Position numbers and translations under genes: made by a program | NCBI GenBank assembly: GCA_002261195.1 | Contig: MVBO01000004.1 | Span: 419,022-483,021, forward strand | DNA length: 64,000 nucleotides | Direction of reading: 5' to 3' | From: Bifiguratus adelaidae | Lineage: Eukaryota; Mucoromycota; Endogonomycetes; Endogonales | In this document: positions 13,950-61,390 of the stretch, piece by piece | Layout: the number at the start of each line of letters is the position of its first letter | How positions within the stretch are numbered: position 1 is the stretch's first letter | The notes under the pieces: model-generated | What the model was told of the DNA's origin: nothing | The model's database searches: none | The model's input: only the letters and a program-made list of their open reading frames with translations

Positions 13950-14821
13950 CTACCAGGGAAGCAATTGACCTTTGTAATTGTAGAATTTGCCGTTACTCTC
14001 GGTGGTGCATCCGCCAATCACTTGAAGTATTCCCTCAGCGGACTCTTCAATAGTGATTTGTCCCCTTTGACGTGCCATATCGGTCTTGACGATACCTGGA
14101 TGAATGGCGATAAAGATGAACCCTTTGTCTTCGTAGTGATAACTGAAGATTGTGCTTACTATGCAAAACTGAGTTGTAGATAAGGTGCGCTCCTTTTCAG
14201 CACCTACACATGTTTAGAGCTGCTTTGCTCACCATATAGCTTGCTGTTGCCGGTCTAGGCTTATACTGGGAAACTAGTTCCAGTGAACCCGCCATGGATG
14301 ATAGGTTCACGACCAAACGACGTTGACGCTTCTCGAGTGAGGGTAGAAAGGCGCGCGTGACGTTCAGAATGCCGACTACGTTCGCATCGAACGTCTTGTT
14401 AAAGTCGCTGGCATCGCTAAAATCCGAAGTCAAAATGCGGTTTGGAGTGGTCGGGACATTGTGTACTTACACGTCCTCAAACGCGCTACCATGCGATAGA
14501 ATGATACCAGCGCTAATGAAAAGGTGTCAATATCAATGTTCGAATGATGCTTGGTGACTCCGCCTACTTGTTGATCAAGATATCCAATCCTTGTGGCACG
14601 ACTTTGTCCACCTGAGAAGCCGCAGCGCTGATACTCTCCAGATCCGTGACATCGCAATGGACTACGTGAAGACGGTCCGATCTCAAATCTTCAAGCTCAG
14701 TCGCTGTATTCGGACTACGTACTGCAGCGACTACAGTGTTACCTGTAGAAAGTAATTGTTTGACGAGACCGAGGCCAATGCCTCGAGAGGCACCCGTAAT
14801 CAAAATGGTGGATGTTGCCAT
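13950..14821 (-). CDS. Short-chain dehydrogenase/reductase, 4 exons
   Basis: A classical NADP(H)-type SDR of 237 aa. Exons in transcription order: 14568-14821, 14471-14512, 14208-14416, 13950-14158; introns of 49-55 nt, all GT-AG. Visible signatures: the Rossmann nucleotide motif TGASRGIG near residues 9-16, CDVTD (adenine pocket), NNAG rebuilt across the first intron, the catalytic Ser in NLSSMAGS, and YMVSKAAL (Tyr-x3-Lys). The C-terminal half (FIAIHPGIVKTDMA) matches the carbonyl-reductase-like subgroup that includes norsolorinic-acid ketoreductase relatives. Substrate cannot be read from the sequence. It is a distant relative of the SDR at 55092, which has no introns, so the two are not recent duplicates. 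Confidence 0.87.
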
Positions 14822-53190: not shown

Positions 53191-54790
53191 GTTCGGACAA
53201 GATGAGATCAGCGACTTTTTCGCCGACGGCATATAGACAAGAATGAATATAGCAAGGGAGAGGCATTGGGAGTATACTGGCATCTGCAACACGTAATCCT
53301 TGGACACCTTTGATGCGGAGCGTCAATGCCTCTCTGTGCGATGTGCCAAGCGTTGCGGGTAATGGGTCAGGAAAGACCCCTCTTGCGACACTAGCAATTG
53401 ACCTTCAGGAGTGCCGTGCACATCAAACGCATCGCTTTTCGGATGGAGACACGCATGGCGACATTATCAAACTCCGTGGTATTGTACTGATGGTCGATGA
53501 TTGGGATTAATATTTGGAACCGAAGAAGCGAGCGTGATGGAACCTCGAGAGGTTGGCGTCATGACAATGGTCGCCAGGGTGACGAGTGAACCACCCATGG
53601 GATCCGGTACTCCCGCACCATCGTAGAGGACGGCGTATTCCACGTGAGGTAACAGTGGATGTTGCAACGCTTTGGTTTCATCCGGGACACTTCCCTTTCT
53701 GGCGAGATCAAGTACTGTGCTATTGAAAACGATCGTAAATGAGCCAATCCACCGGATGGCTAGTCATGAGAATTGGTTCGTTCCGTGGCGACCCAACGGC
53801 CAATCCCTTCTCGGGCTCTCTCAACTTCCAGGCTTCAACAACCGCCAGGGGATCATGCAAGTTGCGCCTACATGGGGCGAGTCGACAACCTGCGGGATAC
53901 CGTGCTTGGCGAGCTCGTCGGCGGGTCCAATGCCTGACTAGAGATGGATGTGAGGCGTTTGAAAGGCGCCCGCAGAAAGGAAATTTTCCTTTCGCACGTA
54001 AATGGTATCTCCACCCAGCAATTCCACCCCGTGTCGGTATGATCATTGAAGAGAACACGATTGACTCTGGTAGCGTGGAGAGCATCAACACCAGTCATGT
54101 CATAGGCTAAACTCTCCTGTTGCCGTTTCCTCTCTCGCCAGTTGTCCTTTACTTCGCCAAGACCAAGCGGACGGCCGTTATTGGCGTCCGGAACGCGCTC
54201 GAAACGACGGTGTTCCCAAGCCTCTTTCAAAGGCTCGCGCAACGGAAATCGGCGTTTCGGATTGGTCGATATCTGTTCGGTATACATGGGACCGTCGAAG
54301 CCGTGCTGCGATGGGTCAGCGGTCGGATCGTGATGATGCTCCACCCCCTTAAAGTATGGCAGTAGCCCATGGTAGCTCCAGGCGTCATCGCCGACCAGCT
54401 TGGCCCATTCACAATGGTGACCAATGGATCCGCGTGTTCAGGCGCGCCATAATTGGTCGCCGAACCACCCGAAAACACTTTTCCTGCCGTAAGGTACAAC
54501 GGCCGATTGTTCAAACCCGGTTGTGGAACAGTCTGATAAGCCCAGTCAATGTCCGTATAGTGCGCTTGAAAGGCTGCCAAAGGAGGCCAATGACTGGATT
54601 GCCTTCAGGACGTTGTCATGCCTCAATGACGAGGATAAACAAGCACGGAGCGGCTTGCTTTAGACGAGCTGCAATAACGCATCCGGTGAGACCTCCTCCA
54701 ACAATGTAGTCTGCTTCAGCAAGTCCTGTAGTCATAACGAGCAAACACTGGTCTTACATGTTTTGGCTGCGGGATCATACACACAGGCTA
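53190..54790 (-). pseudogene. GMC oxidoreductase (aryl-alcohol oxidase / choline dehydrogenase type), decayed
   Basis: GMC-family motifs appear in correct order on the minus strand but in different frames with stops between: ADYIVGGGLTGCVIAARLKQ (FAD-binding Rossmann motif, ~54690), YTDIDWAYQTVPQ and LTAGKVFSGGSATNYG (~54560-54450), VDALHATRVNRVLF, FSAGAFQTPHIHL then a TAG then SGIGPADELAKHGIP (~54000-53900), and the C-terminal GVQGLRVADASILPMPL with YAVGEKVADLI (~53310-53215). Intact members are 560-620 residues, FAD-dependent, and oxidise alcohols or sugars, often secreted or in natural-product clusters. The stops are not removable by GT-AG introns (for example the TAG before SGIGP). This is a dead gene. 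Confidence 0.8.
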
Positions 54791-55091: not shown

Positions 55092-55904
55092 ATGTCGTCT
55101 TATGTGGTAACTGGAGCAAGCCGAGGCATTGGCCTTGAATTCGTTCGTCAACTGAGTGACCATCCATCCAACACGGTGATCGCTGTGGTCCGAAACAAGA
55201 GCAATATTCCTCACTTGGCACCGTTGCTCGCCAGAGCCAATGTACATGCAGTTCAAGCGGATGTGACGTCGCCCGAGCAATTGGCCGAGGCGGCAGTCGA
55301 GGTCGGCCAAATCACGGGTGGATCGCTCGATGTCCTTATCGCCAACGCGGGTATCTCGGAGAAAGGGGCTGGTGTGACGCTTGCTCAACCGGGACTTGAT
55401 CAAAGAGAACTCGGCAAGGCGATGGTCAACATGTTTGAATGGAACACTGTCAGTGCTGTCTGGACCAACAATGCGTTCCTTCCTCTCCTGCGAAGAGGCA
55501 AGCAAAAGAAGATCATCGACACATCTTCTGGTCTCGGTGATGTTGAATTCACCAAGAAGACAAACACTTCCGGTATGGCGCCCTACAGTATCTCCAAAGC
55601 GGCTCTGTCCTTCGCAGTTCTCAAGTACGCCATCGAGCTTCAACCCGAGGGGTTCACTGTGGTGGCTATATCGCCAGGCCTGGTCGATACAAGCTCAACC
55701 AAGGATACTCCTCCGCCTACCGAGGAAGAAATGAAGCAATTTGCTGTGGTGGCGGAAACGTGGGCGGCCGCCTATCCAAATTGGGATCGGAAGCCAATCA
55801 GCGTGGAAGAGTCTGTCCGATGCCAGTTGCAGACGATCGAAGCGATCGGTCCACAAGATAATGGTAGATTCATGTCGCATCACAATGATGATCAGTGGTA
55901 CTAG
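55092..55904 (+). CDS. Short-chain dehydrogenase/reductase, intact copy of a duplicated pair
   Basis: Predicted 270-aa single-exon SDR. The nucleotide motif TGASRGIG is at residues 7-14; ADVTSPEQL, the ANAG structural motif, SSGLGD with the catalytic Ser region, and YSISKAAL (Tyr-x3-Lys) are all present. The C-terminal part (VVAISPGLVDT, then a Pro/Glu-rich loop) is typical of the carbonyl-reductase-like group that includes fungal norsolorinic-acid ketoreductase relatives. A degenerate second copy lies at 57958-58771, and an amidohydrolase gene follows each copy, so SDR plus amidohydrolase was duplicated as a unit. Substrate unknown. Confidence 0.9.
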   Translation: MSSYVVTGASRGIGLEFVRQLSDHPSNTVIAVVRNKSNIPHLAPLLARANVHAVQADVTSPEQLAEAAVEVGQITGGSLDVLIANAGISEKGAGVTLAQPGLDQRELGKAMVNMFEWNTVSAVWTNNAFLPLLRRGKQKKIIDTSSGLGDVEFTKKTNTSGMAPYSISKAALSFAVLKYAIELQPEGFTVVAISPGLVDTSSTKDTPPPTEEEMKQFAVVAETWAAAYPNWDRKPISVEESVRCQLQTIEAIGPQDNGRFMSHHNDDQWY

Positions 55905-56413
55905 TGAGGAGGCGTCAGGACATTTTGTGTTATCTCTAACTCGATGGATAAAAGTACATGATCCGTGAGGGAAAGTACGGCGTTGCTCCAGACGCTGTGT
56001 CTTGTTCAATTCTTACATGCCGAAGCAGTTTTGGGAGGCATCAGTCTGGTGCCCTATGTGCTATATGCCCGTTTCAATCTCCTAGGTCTCAATTCAAGTT
56101 TAACCTGGTGGGATGGGATGAAAATGGAAAAGTTTGTGGACAATAGACTGTTAGACTAAACTCCTACGCGGCTTTAGTCATCCCTAGGTCGGCTCGTTTC
56201 AGTAGATCTGGGAATTAACAAGTAGAAAGAAGGAAGAACTCACTGACTCATCCTTTCCGAAGCCGTCCAACCGTTTCTAATGGGCTAAAATATCTCAAAC
56301 CCTGAAACAGGCAATTTTTGAATGCGGCACTTCGGGGAGTCGGACGGCGTGGACGAGGATATAATACTCGCAGAAACACTAAAACTCACGGCAGGATAAT
56401 CATTGGCTTAATC
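55905..56413. other. Spacer between SDR and amidohydrolase, unit 1
   Basis: About 510 bases; the equivalent spacer in unit 2 is about 340. A TATA-like gatataatac is at 56358-56367, some 50 bases before the amidohydrolase start. No gene supported. Confidence 0.35.
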
Positions 56414-57653
56414 ATGGCCACAGCTATTACCAACGTTCGCGTCTTTGATGGAGACAAGGTTATCCAGAACCAAACAGTCCTCATACCGGGCCACATCATT
56501 GCTATCGGTGGCATTGTCCCAGAAGGAGCCGACGTCATCAATGGAGAAGGTGCGACCTTGTTACCAGGGCTGATCGATGCTCACGTACATACCAACGAAG
56601 AAGGTCTTCGCAACGCGCTCGTCTTTGGCATTACCACGGAATTGGAAATGATGGGCCACTTTACACCAGAGCAGCGCCAATTGATTGCTGAATCTGACGA
56701 TATGGCGGATGTTCGGTCTGCCGACTTTGGTGTCACAGCTCCCGATGGTCATCCCCAAGAGCTAATTCGCAAGGTTGCAGCGCGTTCTGGTCCTCCGGCC
56801 CATCAGCATGGCGTCGGTGATTGTCCCGCAGAACTTCAGGCAGCACCTACGGTTAGTACCCCGGAGGAGGCCAAGGATGTCGTTGCGCAACGTGTTGCTT
56901 CAGGGGCTGACTACATCAAGATTATGATTGAAGAGGGTAGCGTGCTACAGGAGCCTGGTTTGCCAACATTGAGCCATGAGACACTAGTTACTGCTGTTCA
57001 AGAGGCGCACCGCCATGGCAAGATGGCTATTGCCCACGCAATGACTGCGGAAGCTACCGAGCAGGCAATTGCCATCGGGGTCGATGGTCTAGCACATCTA
57101 TTCATCGATCAACCTCACACATCTGAAATAGTGAAGCGTATTGTCGCATCTGGCGCATTTGTCACACCATGCCTTGCTCTCAACTCTTCTGTCATGGGCA
57201 GGACCGGAGCCGATCTCGTTGCTGACGAGCGTGTCTCGTCGAAATTGAGCCCAGTATGGCTCAAGGCCCTCTGCGGTAGCTTCAACACATATCCTCAAGG
57301 CAATTTTGACAATGTCCTCGGGACCGTGGCTGCCATGCATAAGGCAGGAGTTGACATCTTGGCTGGGACAGATGTGTCTGTCCCATTTCCCCAACTCGGG
57401 CGGGCTTACTCATGGCGCAAGTCTTCATCACGAGTTGCGACTGTTGGTCGAGGCGGGGCTGACTCCTATTGAGGCTCTTCGAGCAGCGACGTCTGTGACA
57501 GCACGGCGCTTTGGACTGGATGATCGAGGACGAATTGCCGTAGGGGCCCGGGCTGATCTGGTTCTTGTGGATGGGGATCCAACAAATAACATTAGTGACT
57601 CTATCTATTCGCCATGTATGGCGTCGCGGAACTCGTATGTAGACATTATATAA
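56414..57653 (+). pseudogene. Amidohydrolase, frameshifted copy (unit 1)
   Basis: Alignment to the intact copy at 59115 shows the same protein from MATAITNVRVFDG to the DVSVPFP motif, including the metal ligands His-x-His (DAHVHTN) and the Lys of DYIKIMIEEG. At 57392-57405 the copy reads CTCGGGCGGGCTT where the intact gene has CTCGGCGGGCTT: one inserted G shifts the frame and the reading ends early at 57472. The correct frame continues (GLTHGASLHHELRLLVEAGL, VTARRFGLDDRGRIAVGARA), but a second lesion, loss of two bases near 57600-57604 (GACTCTATC versus GATTCTCTATC), scrambles the last 18 residues. Both lesions are small, so inactivation may be recent. Confidence 0.88.
57233..57391. repeat. 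159-nt tract identical to 59940-60098 (copy A)
   Basis: From gtctcgtcg to catttccc the two amidohydrolase copies match at every one of 159 bases, third codon positions included. The sequence immediately upstream (the preceding 110 bases) differs at about one base in five, and the downstream side diverges at once. A 39-base identical island (ggcggggctgactcctattg and the bases after it) follows about 50 bases later. This is the pattern of a gene-conversion tract. Confidence 0.8.
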
Positions 57654-57957
57654 TAGAGCTGAATTTTATAGAGCAGATGTAGTTCTTCTTTGGTGTCCTG
57701 GATCTCTCCCGAGGAAAGAAGATTGCCTCGTAATCCCATTGCGCATCTTTCTCTTTCTAGACCACCTTGGGCCTATAACCCTACAGCAAGCCTCGTGGAT
57801 GGCTAACAACCACCAACGCGGAAGCTGTTACCTCCATCCATGGCAACTCTGACATCCCCGTAATCCCCCTTGCTTAAACAATGGATGACGCATAGACAGG
57901 AACACCTAATCAATCTACTGGACCCTCCGTTACATGAATCACCTCATATTCTGCGCC
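57654..57957. other. Spacer between duplicated units
   Basis: About 300 bases between the amidohydrolase pseudogene and the SDR pseudogene. No feature supported. Confidence 0.3.
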
Positions 57958-58771
57958 ATGTTCTATTTACGTGATAAATGGAGCAAGCCGAGGCATTCGG
58001 CATTAAATTTGTGCGTCAACTGAGTGTCAATCCATTCAATACTCTCTTGGAGTCTGTTCGAAACGAGGGCGATATTCCTCGCTTGAAGCCTTCGCTGTCA
58101 AGAGCCAACGTCCATGTTATTATTGAAGCGAATGTGACGTCGCTTGAGCAACTGGCCCAAGCTGCGACAGAGGATAGCCAAATCGCAGGTGGATGGGTGG
58201 ACGTGCTGATTGCCAATATAGGCACCGTGGGGGGGGGGGATGGCATTTGTGCACGCCTTGCTCCGCCGGAACTTGATCAAAGAGTGCTCGGGAAGGCAAT
58301 GATTGACATGTTTGAACACAATACGCTTAGTAGCATCTGGACGAACAATGCGTTCCTTCCTCTCTTGTGAAACGGTAAGCAAAAGAAAATCAGCAACATG
58401 TCATCTGCCTTGGGTGATATGGGATTTACCAAGCAGTCAAAATATCCTGCGTTGGCGCCTTGCAAGATTCCCAAAGCCGCTCTGTCATTTGCCGTCCTCA
58501 AATACGCGCATGAGCTAGGAAGCGAACTTCACAGTGGTGGCCTTATCACCTGCATTCGTGGACATCAGCACGACCAAAAAGCAGCCGCCAACCGAACAAG
58601 AGATCAAGTAAATTGCGGTAATGATTGAATGGTGGTCTCCTCTATTCCCTGCTTGGAATCGTGAGCCCGATGTCATGCAAGATTCCGTACGCAGTTGGAG
58701 ACGATGGAAGCAATGGTCCAGAGGATTGCGGGAGATTCATTTCCCATCACAATAATGATAAATGGTTCTAG
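57958..58771 (+). pseudogene. Short-chain dehydrogenase, degenerate copy (unit 2)
   Basis: Aligned base by base with the SDR at 55092, this copy has an ATG at the equivalent place and the same length, ending at the equivalent TAG. An extra base near codon 7 puts the nucleotide-binding motif out of frame with the ATG. A TGA replaces the CGA-type codon in the LPLLR segment (58368-58370), and a run of nine Gs at about 58230-58238 lies within the former NAG-motif region. More small changes break the frame toward the end. Conserved pieces still readable are KFVRQLSVNPFNTLLE, NVTSLEQLAQAA and TNNAFLPLL. Not functional. Confidence 0.88.
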
Positions 58772-59114
58772 CCGCCGAGAATACAACAACTGTAGGCATG
58801 TCTTCGAAGAATATAAATCATGATGCGCAAAGCACATGTCCTATACTCAGGGCATACCAACGACACACGTGGCTGCGACTGGAGTTCGTTCCGACGTGCA
58901 AATACCAATCATTGTACAGCGTACTGAGCCATTGATGTTCGCATCCCTGTAGAGGTGCGGAATTACATCTTGGAGGTGGAGCGTGCAAAGGCGCGGAAAT
59001 ACACAATGGCACCCAAATTCCCGGAATAGTGTCTGGTTAAATAGATTACCCGACAAATATACATACACTGAACCGCAGACCAAATCCCCATAGCTGGATA
59101 AGCATCCTCTTTCC
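58772..59114. other. Spacer between SDR pseudogene and amidohydrolase, unit 2
   Basis: 343 bases, promoter of the intact amidohydrolase if it is transcribed on its own. No obvious TATA element within 60 bases of the start. Confidence 0.3.
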
Positions 59115-60359
59115 ATGATGACCGCCATCACCAATGTCCGCGTATTTGATGGGAACAAGGTCCTCGAGAATCAGACGGTCGTCATTGCTGGACAGACGAT
59201 CAGCGCTGTGGGAGGAGCCGTGCCTGAAGGAGCGAACATGATCAACGGAGAGGGTGCAACCCTTTTACCGGGACTTATTGATGCGCACGTACACACCAAC
59301 CCAGATGGACTTCGCAACGCTCTCGTCTTTGGCGTCACCACGGAACTGGAGATGATGGGCCACAGGACTCCAGAGCAGCGCAAGCAAATCGCCGAGTCGG
59401 ATGACATGGCGGATGTTCGGTCTGCCGATTTCGGTCTTACAGCCCCAGGTGGTCATCCGAGTGAGATACATAGCAAGATTCCTCGGCCTTCTGGTCCACC
59501 TGCCCACCACCATGGCGGTGGTCAAGGTTCCCCGCAACGCTATGGGGCAGCACCCACAGCTTCTACCCCAGACGAAGCCAAGGATTTCGTCGCGCAACGT
59601 GTTGCTTCAGGGGCTGACTATATCAAGGTCATGATTGAAGAGGGCAGCCTGCTTGATGCGCCTGGTCTGCCCATGTTGAGCCACGAGACACTGGTCACGG
59701 CTGTTCAAGAGGCACACCGACACGGCAAGTTGGCCATTGCCCACGCACTGACTTCTGAAGCTACAGAGCAAGCCATTGCTATCGGCGTCGACGGTTTAGC
59801 ACACCTATTTATTGATCAACCTCATACAGACGAACTGGTAAAGCGTATTGCGGACTCTGGGGCCTTCGTCACACCATGCCTTGTCCTCAACTCTTCCATC
59901 ATGGGCAAAACCGGAGCCGGTCTCGCTACAGACAATCGCGTCTCGTCGAAATTGAGCCCAGTATGGCTCAAGGCCCTCTGCGGTAGCTTCAACACATATC
60001 CTCAAGGCAATTTTGACAATGTCCTCGGGACCGTGGCTGCCATGCATAAGGCAGGAGTTGACATCTTGGCTGGGACAGATGTGTCTGTCCCATTTCCCGA
60101 ACTCGGCGGGCTTGCTCACGGCGCAAGTCTACATCACGAGTTGCAATTGTTGGTCAAGGCGGGGCTGACTCCTATTGAGGCTCTTCGAGCAGCGACATCA
60201 GTTACCGCACGTCGTTTTGGACTGGACGATCGAGGACGGATTGCTGTCGGTGCCCGCGCTGATCTTGTACTGGTGGACGGGGACCCAACAACAAACATTA
60301 GCGATTCTCTATCTATTCGCCATGTATGGCGCCGAGGCGTTTTATTGAACGCAAAATAA
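59115..60359 (+). CDS. Metal-dependent amidohydrolase, intact copy
   Basis: Predicted 414 aa, single exon, beginning MMTAITNVRVFDGNK; either of two adjacent ATGs may be used, and the second aligns with the start of the broken copy. It belongs to the amidohydrolase superfamily, imidazolonepropionase/prolidase-like branch. It has an N-terminal beta-sandwich strand, then GLIDAHVHTN with the metal-binding His58 and His60, DYIKVMIEEG with Lys171 (the likely carboxylated bridging lysine), His residues in AHRHGKLAIAH and GLAHLF, and catalytic Asp322 in AGTDVSVPF. The C-terminal sandwich closes with GRIAVGARADLVLVDGDP. Relatives include fungal enzymes that hydrolyse cyclic amides, carbamates or dipeptides. 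There is no signal peptide, so it is cytosolic. Tandem duplicate of the pseudogene at 56414. Confidence 0.9.
   Translation: MMTAITNVRVFDGNKVLENQTVVIAGQTISAVGGAVPEGANMINGEGATLLPGLIDAHVHTNPDGLRNALVFGVTTELEMMGHRTPEQRKQIAESDDMADVRSADFGLTAPGGHPSEIHSKIPRPSGPPAHHHGGGQGSPQRYGAAPTASTPDEAKDFVAQRVASGADYIKVMIEEGSLLDAPGLPMLSHETLVTAVQEAHRHGKLAIAHALTSEATEQAIAIGVDGLAHLFIDQPHTDELVKRIADSGAFVTPCLVLNSSIMGKTGAGLATDNRVSSKLSPVWLKALCGSFNTYPQGNFDNVLGTVAAMHKAGVDILAGTDVSVPFPELGGLAHGASLHHELQLLVKAGLTPIEALRAATSVTARRFGLDDRGRIAVGARADLVLVDGDPTTNISDSLSIRHVWRRGVLLNAK
59940..60098. repeat. 159-nt tract identical to 57233-57391 (copy B)
   Basis: Partner of the tract at 57233-57391, inside the coding sequence from codon 276 onward and including the catalytic AGTDVSVPF segment. 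See copy A for the flanking divergence. Confidence 0.8.
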
Positions 60360-61000
60360 ACAATGCAAGCACTGTCTTGCAAGAGAATGGGACATACCTA
60401 TTTATAATGTCCGCATGCAGTTTAAAATAAAGTCTCCCTATGGAACTCGTCCGGTTCACAACTCTCATGATCTGCCGAGACGATGCTGTTTGCGCAGTAA
60501 GGTGAGCAGGTCACTCAAGGTCCACCGCCAAAGGAAGTTATCCATGCTTTGTGCAGGTACACTCCCCATCGATAAGTCACCTGCCGCAGCACAGCTATAA
60601 CTTGATTCGGCATGCAAATGGTTTCTTTCGGCAGCGAACAATTTGATCTGTCGTGACAACCGGCGAGAGTTCATTGACAAGCACGTCCACTCTAGACCTG
60701 TACGATAGGTGGGCCGCGGTAAAGGACAAGCTTACTCGCAAAAAGGAGATATTGGCGATATCAAGGTGTAAGATACGGACGGAAACATTTTGCAAGCCGT
60801 TGATGATCAGCAAGTGCCTCTGCTGCGGAGCCGTGTATTGCAGCTGTTAGGCGAAGAGCATGAGCAACCAAGCGACCCCGGATTGAAATTGACGGTGACA
60901 GAGCTTGTCATCCCATTCACCGAGTCTCCGCGTGCGCAACAGAGTCAAAGAGGATCGACGCCCTGGACAAGGTTAACACGGACCCGTCGACCACATCGAG
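60360..61000. other. Region without an intact gene
   Basis: About 640 bases after the intact amidohydrolase. One stretch (60775-60990) reads as protein (DDQQVPLLRSRVLQLLGEE and VTELVIPFTESPR) but has no start, and stops flank it in all splice choices tried. It may be the 5' part of a dead gene. Family not recognised. Confidence 0.35.
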
Positions 61001-61004
61001 TTAC

Positions 61005-61390
61005 CATGGACTCTATCATCTTGCTCTCTGGGCCAGTCGGCGCTGGCGAGACGACCATTGGATACGAACTCACTAAGGTATCCCCCAACAACACGGTATA
61101 CATGGAACGCGACACGTTTGGACCCATTTCGTGAAAGGCGCTCCTGCTGAGGCACGCCACCAGCGCTTTCTCATCGTATTGCGGGCCATGACAGCCGCTG
61201 CAATGCCTTACGCAAAGTCTTGGTTCCAAGTGATCGTCGACTTTCCAGACTATACGCCCCGTATACGGCCTTTACGTGTCGTGTGAAGTACAGCAAGCTA
61301 GAACCATTCGTGATGAAACGAGTGATGCAGCGACCATTGCCTCCAAGATTCGACAAGGTCTTGACGCTGGTCGATTGAGAGTGTGAACGT
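61005..61390 (+). pseudogene. P-loop kinase-like remnant with a mutated Walker A
   Basis: The frame starting MDSIILLSGPVGAGETTIGYEL carries a Walker A box in which the invariant Lys is Glu (GPVGAGETT instead of GxxGxGKT), followed by NNTVYMERDTFGPIS and a TGA at 61131-61133. After a frame change it continues VKGAPAEARHQRFLIVLRAMTAAAMPYA, then stops again. The order resembles small gluconate/shikimate-kinase-like nucleotide-binding proteins (AAA_33 type). Loss of the lysine plus stops indicates a dead gene. Confidence 0.6.

What the first reader, a model, noticed from the sequence alone, without database searches (positions are those of the whole stretch)
55092..60359. Tandemly duplicated SDR-amidohydrolase pair with reciprocal loss
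The pair SDR then amidohydrolase occurs twice in the same order and strand. Unit 1 keeps an intact SDR (55092-55904) but its amidohydrolase has a one-base insertion and a two-base loss. Unit 2 has a wrecked SDR (57958-58771) and an intact amidohydrolase (59115-60359). Exactly one working copy of each gene survives, split across the two units. This is the pattern expected if both activities are needed in one pathway but neither needs two copies. It suggests an undescribed two-enzyme catabolic or detoxification step: a hydrolase opening an amide or lactam and a reductase acting on the product or precursor.
Basis: partly seen in the sequence, partly recalled or inferred. Interest (0 to 1): 0.75.

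Follow-up and report, generated by a model that had tools for sequence, protein, structure and literature searches.

The report
Decaying tandem gene pair in fungus
A two-gene stretch in a small-genome fungus was copied side by side long ago and one copy of each gene has since broken; this looks like ordinary gene duplication and decay, and it does not by itself show that the two enzymes work together.

Summary
In an 18.6-Mb fungal genome (NOT1 nearest to Endogone/Jimgerdemannia) an SDR gene and a COG1228-type amidohydrolase (AH) gene lie twice in the same order and strand. SDR1 and AH2 are open; SDR2 is wrecked (two stops, frame-changing indels, catalytic motifs lost); AH1 carries a one-base gain and a two-base loss. 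Both pairs have similar synonymous divergence (dS 0.87 before the AH tract, 0.96 SDR), as one old tandem duplication would give. Overall the broken copies changed faster. The pathway reading is not supported: one loss per pair gives a split half the time by chance; 0 of 80 bacterial AH loci have an adjoining SDR of this kind; the two genes have differently distributed relatives; a broken GMC oxidoreductase lies next door. Linkage in other fungi could not be tested. Ordinary duplication and decay; interest low.

The parts
55092..55904 (+). SDR1, intact classical short-chain dehydrogenase/reductase, 270 aa
   Evidence: open frame; PF00106 E 1.2e-29; motifs TGASRGIG, NAG, YSISK present
56414..57653 (+). 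AH1, amidohydrolase copy 1, broken: frame of 352 codons, two frame lesions towards the 3' end
   Evidence: eleven active-site-region residues unchanged in aligned columns
57233..57391 (+). 159-bp tract identical to AH2 59940-60098: conversion tract or assembly collapse
   Evidence: longest identical run 159 against a maximum of 76 in 5000 codon shuffles
57957..58771 (+). SDR2, wrecked SDR copy: two in-frame stops, several frame-changing indels, Tyr of YxxxK and NAG motif lost
59115..60359 (+). AH2, intact COG1228-type amidohydrolase, 414 aa
   Evidence: open frame; PF01979 E 1.4e-26; H58, H60, K171, H210, H230, D322 invariant in 20 sequences
59940..60098 (+). partner of the 159-bp identical tract in AH2
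53868..54577 (-). neighbouring relic of a GMC oxidoreductase, frame broken near 54438 and apparently truncated (context, not part of the pair)
   Evidence: the relative on contig C24 matches the two pieces in directly adjoining stretches (that relative has a stop in its matched second piece); solved GMC-type relatives; Pfam GMC_oxred_N only 16.3 bits, below its cut-off

Best explanation
One tandem duplication copied a roughly 2.8-kb segment holding SDR and AH. The copies then diverged for a long time (dS about 0.9), and one copy of each gene was freed from constraint: SDR2 decayed thoroughly; AH1 evolved faster than AH2 over most of its length yet stayed under purifying selection, exchanged a 159-bp stretch with AH2 by gene conversion, and lost its frame only recently. 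The split pattern is what redundant gene pairs do; it needs no shared pathway. AH2 most likely is a metal-dependent amidohydrolase that cleaves an amide or peptide-like bond, for example releasing the C-terminal amino acid of an acylated or xenobiotic substrate, and SDR1 an NAD(P)H-dependent carbonyl reductase. Shown: copies, lesions, dS, tract, rate asymmetry, catalytic motifs. Inferred: single event, order of events, conversion as the cause of the tract, enzyme activities, substrates.
For: Same gene order and strand with BLASTN matches of 82% and 70%. NG86 dS 0.869 for AH before the tract (270 codons) and 0.958 for SDR (254 codons). Trees: win_AH1+win_AH2 SH-aLRT 99, win_SDR1+win_SDR2 100/98. 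AH dN/dS about 0.16 before and after the tract, with 24 synonymous against 10 non-synonymous codon differences among the 82 codons after it, nearly all of which lie where AH1's frame is already broken. Polarised residue changes: AH before the tract AH1 32, AH2 9, ambiguous 12; AH overall 36, 16, 13; SDR2 53, SDR1 19, ambiguous 26; end branches AH1 0.22 and AH2 0.079, SDR2 0.73 and SDR1 0.079. 159 identical bases against a shuffled mean of 31 and maximum of 76. A third gene next door, a GMC oxidoreductase relic, is also broken.
Against: No similarity remains between the two intergenic stretches, so one event is inferred from dS and order alone. dS is 0.506 in the 82 codons after the tract, lower than 0.869 before it, and there the rate asymmetry vanishes (AH1 5, AH2 4, ambiguous 1). 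dS near 0.9 is imprecise. The identical tract could be an assembly collapse. No relative with the unduplicated state could be examined.
Confidence: 0.72

Rival explanations
1. The AH1 lesions and the identical tract are assembly or consensus errors; AH1 is a working second hydrolase and only SDR2 is truly lost, so there is no reciprocal loss.
For: Lesion 1 lies six bases past the end of a 159-bp identical tract, where a collapsed repeat would join two copies; lesion 2 borders a 25-bp identical run (a length within the shuffled range); the region after lesion 1 keeps a purifying-selection signature, 24 synonymous and 10 non-synonymous; the eleven active-site-region residues checked are the same in aligned AH1 columns.
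Against: Two separate lesions; the 1798-codon NOT1 exon of the same window is open; AH1 shows 32 against 9 residue changes before the tract, so it was already less constrained.
Confidence: 0.22
2. One reading: SDR and AH are two steps of one catabolic or detoxification route, and selection kept exactly one copy of each.
For: The intact copies are the slower-evolving ones in both pairs. In bacteria 49 of 80 AH loci have a neighbour in one of four ORF clusters whose single scanned representatives are MarR or TetR regulators, and 6 loci share a cluster whose representative is an MFS transporter, fitting an inducible catabolic or detoxification role for the AH.
Against: A split pattern has probability one half under independent loss (reasoning). 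0 of 80 bacterial loci have an adjoining SDR of this kind. Selection to keep each gene does not imply a shared pathway.
Confidence: 0.15
3. AH1 had gained a different substrate after duplication and was lost when that substrate vanished.
For: AH1 changed faster before the tract while keeping dN/dS well under 1 and its active-site residues.
Against: Faster change is equally expected of relaxed constraint; no test for positive selection was possible without outgroup DNA.
Confidence: 0.1

Closest known systems
Tandem gene duplicates with complementary pseudogenisation and gene conversion
   Same: adjacent copies, one copy of each gene broken, similar dS, faster evolution of the broken copies, identical tract
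   Different: nothing in kind; the duplicated unit holds two genes instead of one
COG1228-type amidohydrolases with solved structures (Cc2672 3MTW, 2QS8, 3MKV, 3FEQ/3N2C, ochratoxinase 4C5Y, ADH3 8IHS)
   Same: Amidohydro_1 fold; Foldseek probability 1.00; sequence matches; six presumed metal-ligand columns invariant
   Different: 20-25% identity in the Foldseek rows of these entries; own clade with 59-73% identity to proteins of bacteria and fungi whose substrate I found no report of (listings)
Classical SDR carbonyl reductases, nearest solved 7XWH by phmmer; Sniffer type 1SNY/1YO6 also match
   Same: PF00106, TGxxxGIG, NAG, YxxxK
   Different: the 119 listed homologues beside the query itself are 40-59% identical, many of them unnamed or hypothetical
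Fungal metabolic gene clusters
   Same: enzyme genes side by side (SDR, AH, GMC relic)
   Different: no conserved linkage shown; no regulator, transporter or backbone enzyme recognised beside the pair among the ORFs scanned

Membership tests
Classical SDR (SDR1) | TGxxxGxG cofactor motif, NAG, YxxxK | tested here: met
   TGASRGIG at residue 7, NAG at 85, YSISK at 165; PF00106 E 1.2e-29. The motifs as family markers are recalled
Classical SDR (SDR2) | same motifs in an open frame | tested here: not met
   two stops, Tyr to Cys, NAG to NIG, glycine motif interrupted
Amidohydrolase superfamily, COG1228 type (AH2) | HxH, Lys, His, His, Asp metal site in an Amidohydro_1 fold | tested here: met
   H58, H60, K171, H210, H230, D322 invariant in 20 sequences; PF01979 E 1.4e-26; Foldseek. 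That these residues are the metal ligands is recalled; the label COG1228 is recalled and also stands in a reference title in PMC11342369 (passage)
Xaa-Pro dipeptidase equivalog NF051886 | score over the curated cut-off of 500 bits | tested here: not met
   123.5 bits
Ochratoxinase / OTA amidohydrolase | hydrolysis of ochratoxin A | not testable with these tools
   fold similarity only, 20-22% identity
Tandem duplicate of a two-gene unit | same order and strand, similar age of both gene pairs, sister pairs in trees | tested here: met
   the lower dS of the AH 3' end (0.506) fits less well
Metabolic gene cluster | linkage of the two genes kept in relatives | tested here: inconclusive
   bacteria: 0 of 80 adjoining; fungal relatives could not be examined
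Gene conversion | identity tract far longer than chance, with abrupt edges | tested here: met
   159 against a shuffled maximum of 76; 60 of 60 identical in two windows, 38-57 of 60 in the other 18. Assembly collapse gives the same picture

The most novel reading that the evidence does not exclude
The fungus took up a bacterial-type, substrate-induced amidohydrolase, coupled it with a fungal reductase into a two-step detoxification cassette, and keeps exactly one working cassette through selection while gene conversion and decay reshuffle which unit carries which working gene.
Probability: 0.1. Interest if true: 0.45.

Novelty: new member of a known kind. Interest (0 to 1): 0.18.

Why it matters
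Mainly as a compact example of how a duplicated gene pair decays: copies of similar age, one thorough and one late loss, rate asymmetry and an identical tract, all within 5.3 kb. It also warns that a reciprocal pattern in only two pairs carries almost no information on pathway membership. If the pair did act together it would point to an untested amide-opening route in an early-diverging fungus.

Tried and rejected
Splicing as a rescue of AH1: none of nine typical 5' splice-site hexamers (recalled) occurs in 57331-57600, and an intron there would have to remove residues that are invariant among the 20 aligned sequences (within H335 to E342); rejected. A subtelomeric graveyard: the contig continues 6,455 bases past the window with long open frames (one that I take by eye for chorismate synthase) and no TTAGGG array; rejected for lack of evidence. 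Further copies of the unit elsewhere in the genome: none found. A single fungal clade for the AH: not rejected (p-AU 0.424) but not recovered in the free tree; transfer from bacteria is plausible and unproven. Shared contigs between the two homologue lists: a hand-copied part of the contig lengths (about 60 and about 30 values out of two lists of 120 rows; one or more may be miscopied) overlapped only in the window's own contig; very weak. Structure model of AH2: mean pLDDT 64.9, pTM 0.71, enough for the fold, not for substrate docking. Paper searches for a similar duplicated pair or for this amidohydrolase clade gave nothing on point among the rows listed (listings and abstract starts only). 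Papers on Mucoromycotina (listings; passages) did not identify the organism.

Full report
What the window is. The window lies on a 489,476-base contig of an 18.6-Mb, 286-contig genome. It is fungal: its NOT1 exon is nearest to Endogone sp. (58%) and Jimgerdemannia (59%), then Umbelopsis (54%), among the 120 listed of 1115 matches, so it is most likely a Mucoromycotina fungus near Endogonales. Bifiguratus is a small-genome candidate that I recall; no call names the organism, and the passages seen in PMC10386755 (find) only mention that genus.

Check of the observation. SDR1 (55092-55904, 270 codons) and AH2 (59115-60359, 414 codons) are single open frames. SDR2 aligns to SDR1 at 574 of 803 bases, with two in-frame stops, several frame-changing indels, and the catalytic Tyr of YxxxK and the NAG motif lost. 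AH1 aligns to AH2 at 1010 of 1231 bases and has a one-base gain and a two-base loss towards its 3' end. Pfam agrees: adh_short E 1.2e-29 for SDR1, Amidohydro_1 E 1.4e-26 for AH2, E 7.3e-11 and 2.1e-11 for two AH1 pieces; a 130-residue frame within SDR2 matched nothing. No other close copy was found in the genome. A Pfam search lists 22 Amidohydro_1 matches, three of them the window's own copies; of the rest only the C207 gene was also matched by AH2 itself, at 37-45%.

One old duplication. NG86 dS is 0.869 for the 270 AH codons before the identical tract, 0.506 for the 82 codons after it and 0.958 for SDR (254 codons). The two gene pairs are thus of similar age, although the 3' end of AH looks younger. 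In trees each window pair is a sister pair: AH with SH-aLRT 99 among 71 rows (quick tree), SDR with 100/98 among 33 rows. The intergenic stretches no longer align.

Gene conversion or collapse. Bases 57233-57391 and 59940-60098 are identical over 159 positions, while in 5000 codon shuffles the longest run averaged 31 and never passed 76. In 60-base windows identity is 38-52 before, 60 and 60 within, and 49-57 after. Lesion 1 of AH1 is six bases past the end of the tract. Either a conversion event took place long after the duplication, or the assembly collapsed a stretch; the data here cannot tell. The other listed runs (23-40 bases) are within the shuffled range.

Timing and rate. After the tract, nearly all of it where AH1 is already out of frame, 24 codon differences are synonymous and 10 not, with dN/dS about 0.16, the same as before it. 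AH1 therefore lost its frame late, or the lesion is an error. Residue changes polarised with four outside proteins put 32 on AH1 and 9 on AH2 before the tract (12 ambiguous), but 5 and 4 (1 ambiguous) after it; with five outside proteins 53 fall on SDR2 and 19 on SDR1 (26 ambiguous). So overall the broken copies are also the fast ones. All eleven active-site-region residues checked are unchanged in the aligned columns of AH1; what the frame lesion removes is the last part of the barrel and the C-terminal strands that in the AH2 model lie at 384-388 and 401-406.

What the enzymes are. AH2 has 7402 matches; the 119 listed beside itself include the AH1 fragment (82%) and otherwise run from 59% to 73%. 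Named ones are mostly bacteria (Ktedonobacteraceae, Actinomycetota, Paenibacillus, Deinococcus) with five named fungi (Capronia, Coleophoma, Tulasnella, Pleurostoma, Claussenomyces); a scan of bacterial and archaeal genomes gave 341 relatives, of which 80 loci were kept. Solved relatives by sequence and fold are carboxypeptidases, prolidases and ochratoxin-hydrolysing amidohydrolases, at 20-25% identity in the fold comparison; PMC11342369 (passages) lists carboxypeptidase and dipeptidase activities for several of them. AH2 fails the Xaa-Pro dipeptidase equivalog cut-off (123.5 of 500 bits). In bacteria, 49 of 80 loci have a neighbour in one of four ORF clusters whose scanned representatives are MarR or TetR regulators, 42 of these lying divergently upstream; only one representative per cluster was scanned. 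This suggests an inducible catabolic or detoxification hydrolase. SDR1 is a classical SDR; the relatives that bear an organism's name among the 120 listed are fungal (Sugiyamaella, Umbelopsis, basidiomycetes, some ascomycetes).

Are they one pathway? With one loss in each of two pairs, a split pattern has probability one half (reasoning). Of 80 bacterial AH loci, 3 have an SDR ORF of this kind (phmmer E up to 1e-5) within the flanks held and none adjoins the AH (nearest gap 1601 bases); several loci have short flanks, and distant SDRs may be missed. The AH and SDR come from differently distributed families. A GMC oxidoreductase relic at 53868-54577, split between two frames where its relative on contig C24 matches in adjoining stretches, lies beside SDR1, so decay is not confined to the pair. 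I therefore accept duplication and loss and regard the pathway claim as unproven. Fungal synteny, the test that matters, was out of reach.

Verdict. A real but ordinary case of tandem duplication, gene conversion (or collapse) and pseudogenisation; the AH1 lesions deserve resequencing before anything is built on them.

Noticed in passing
53868-54577 (-): Relic of a GMC oxidoreductase: two pieces that match adjoining stretches of a relative on contig C24 lie in different frames here (break near 54438), and the rest of the gene was not recognised.
   Followed up: partly
57233-57391 and 59940-60098: 159-bp identical tract between AH1 and AH2.
   Followed up: yes
14564-14812 (-): A further SDR-like stretch (41% to SDR1) with one stop in the matched frame; may be an intron-bearing gene.
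   Followed up: no
60997-61131 (+): Short frame resembling a P-loop start (by eye); the longer frame has no Pfam match and the piece no other copy in the genome.
   Followed up: partly
L024-L103: In bacteria this amidohydrolase clade often has a neighbour in a MarR- or TetR-type ORF cluster (49 of 80 loci), which suggests an inducible enzyme of unknown substrate.
   Followed up: partly
   Followed up: no
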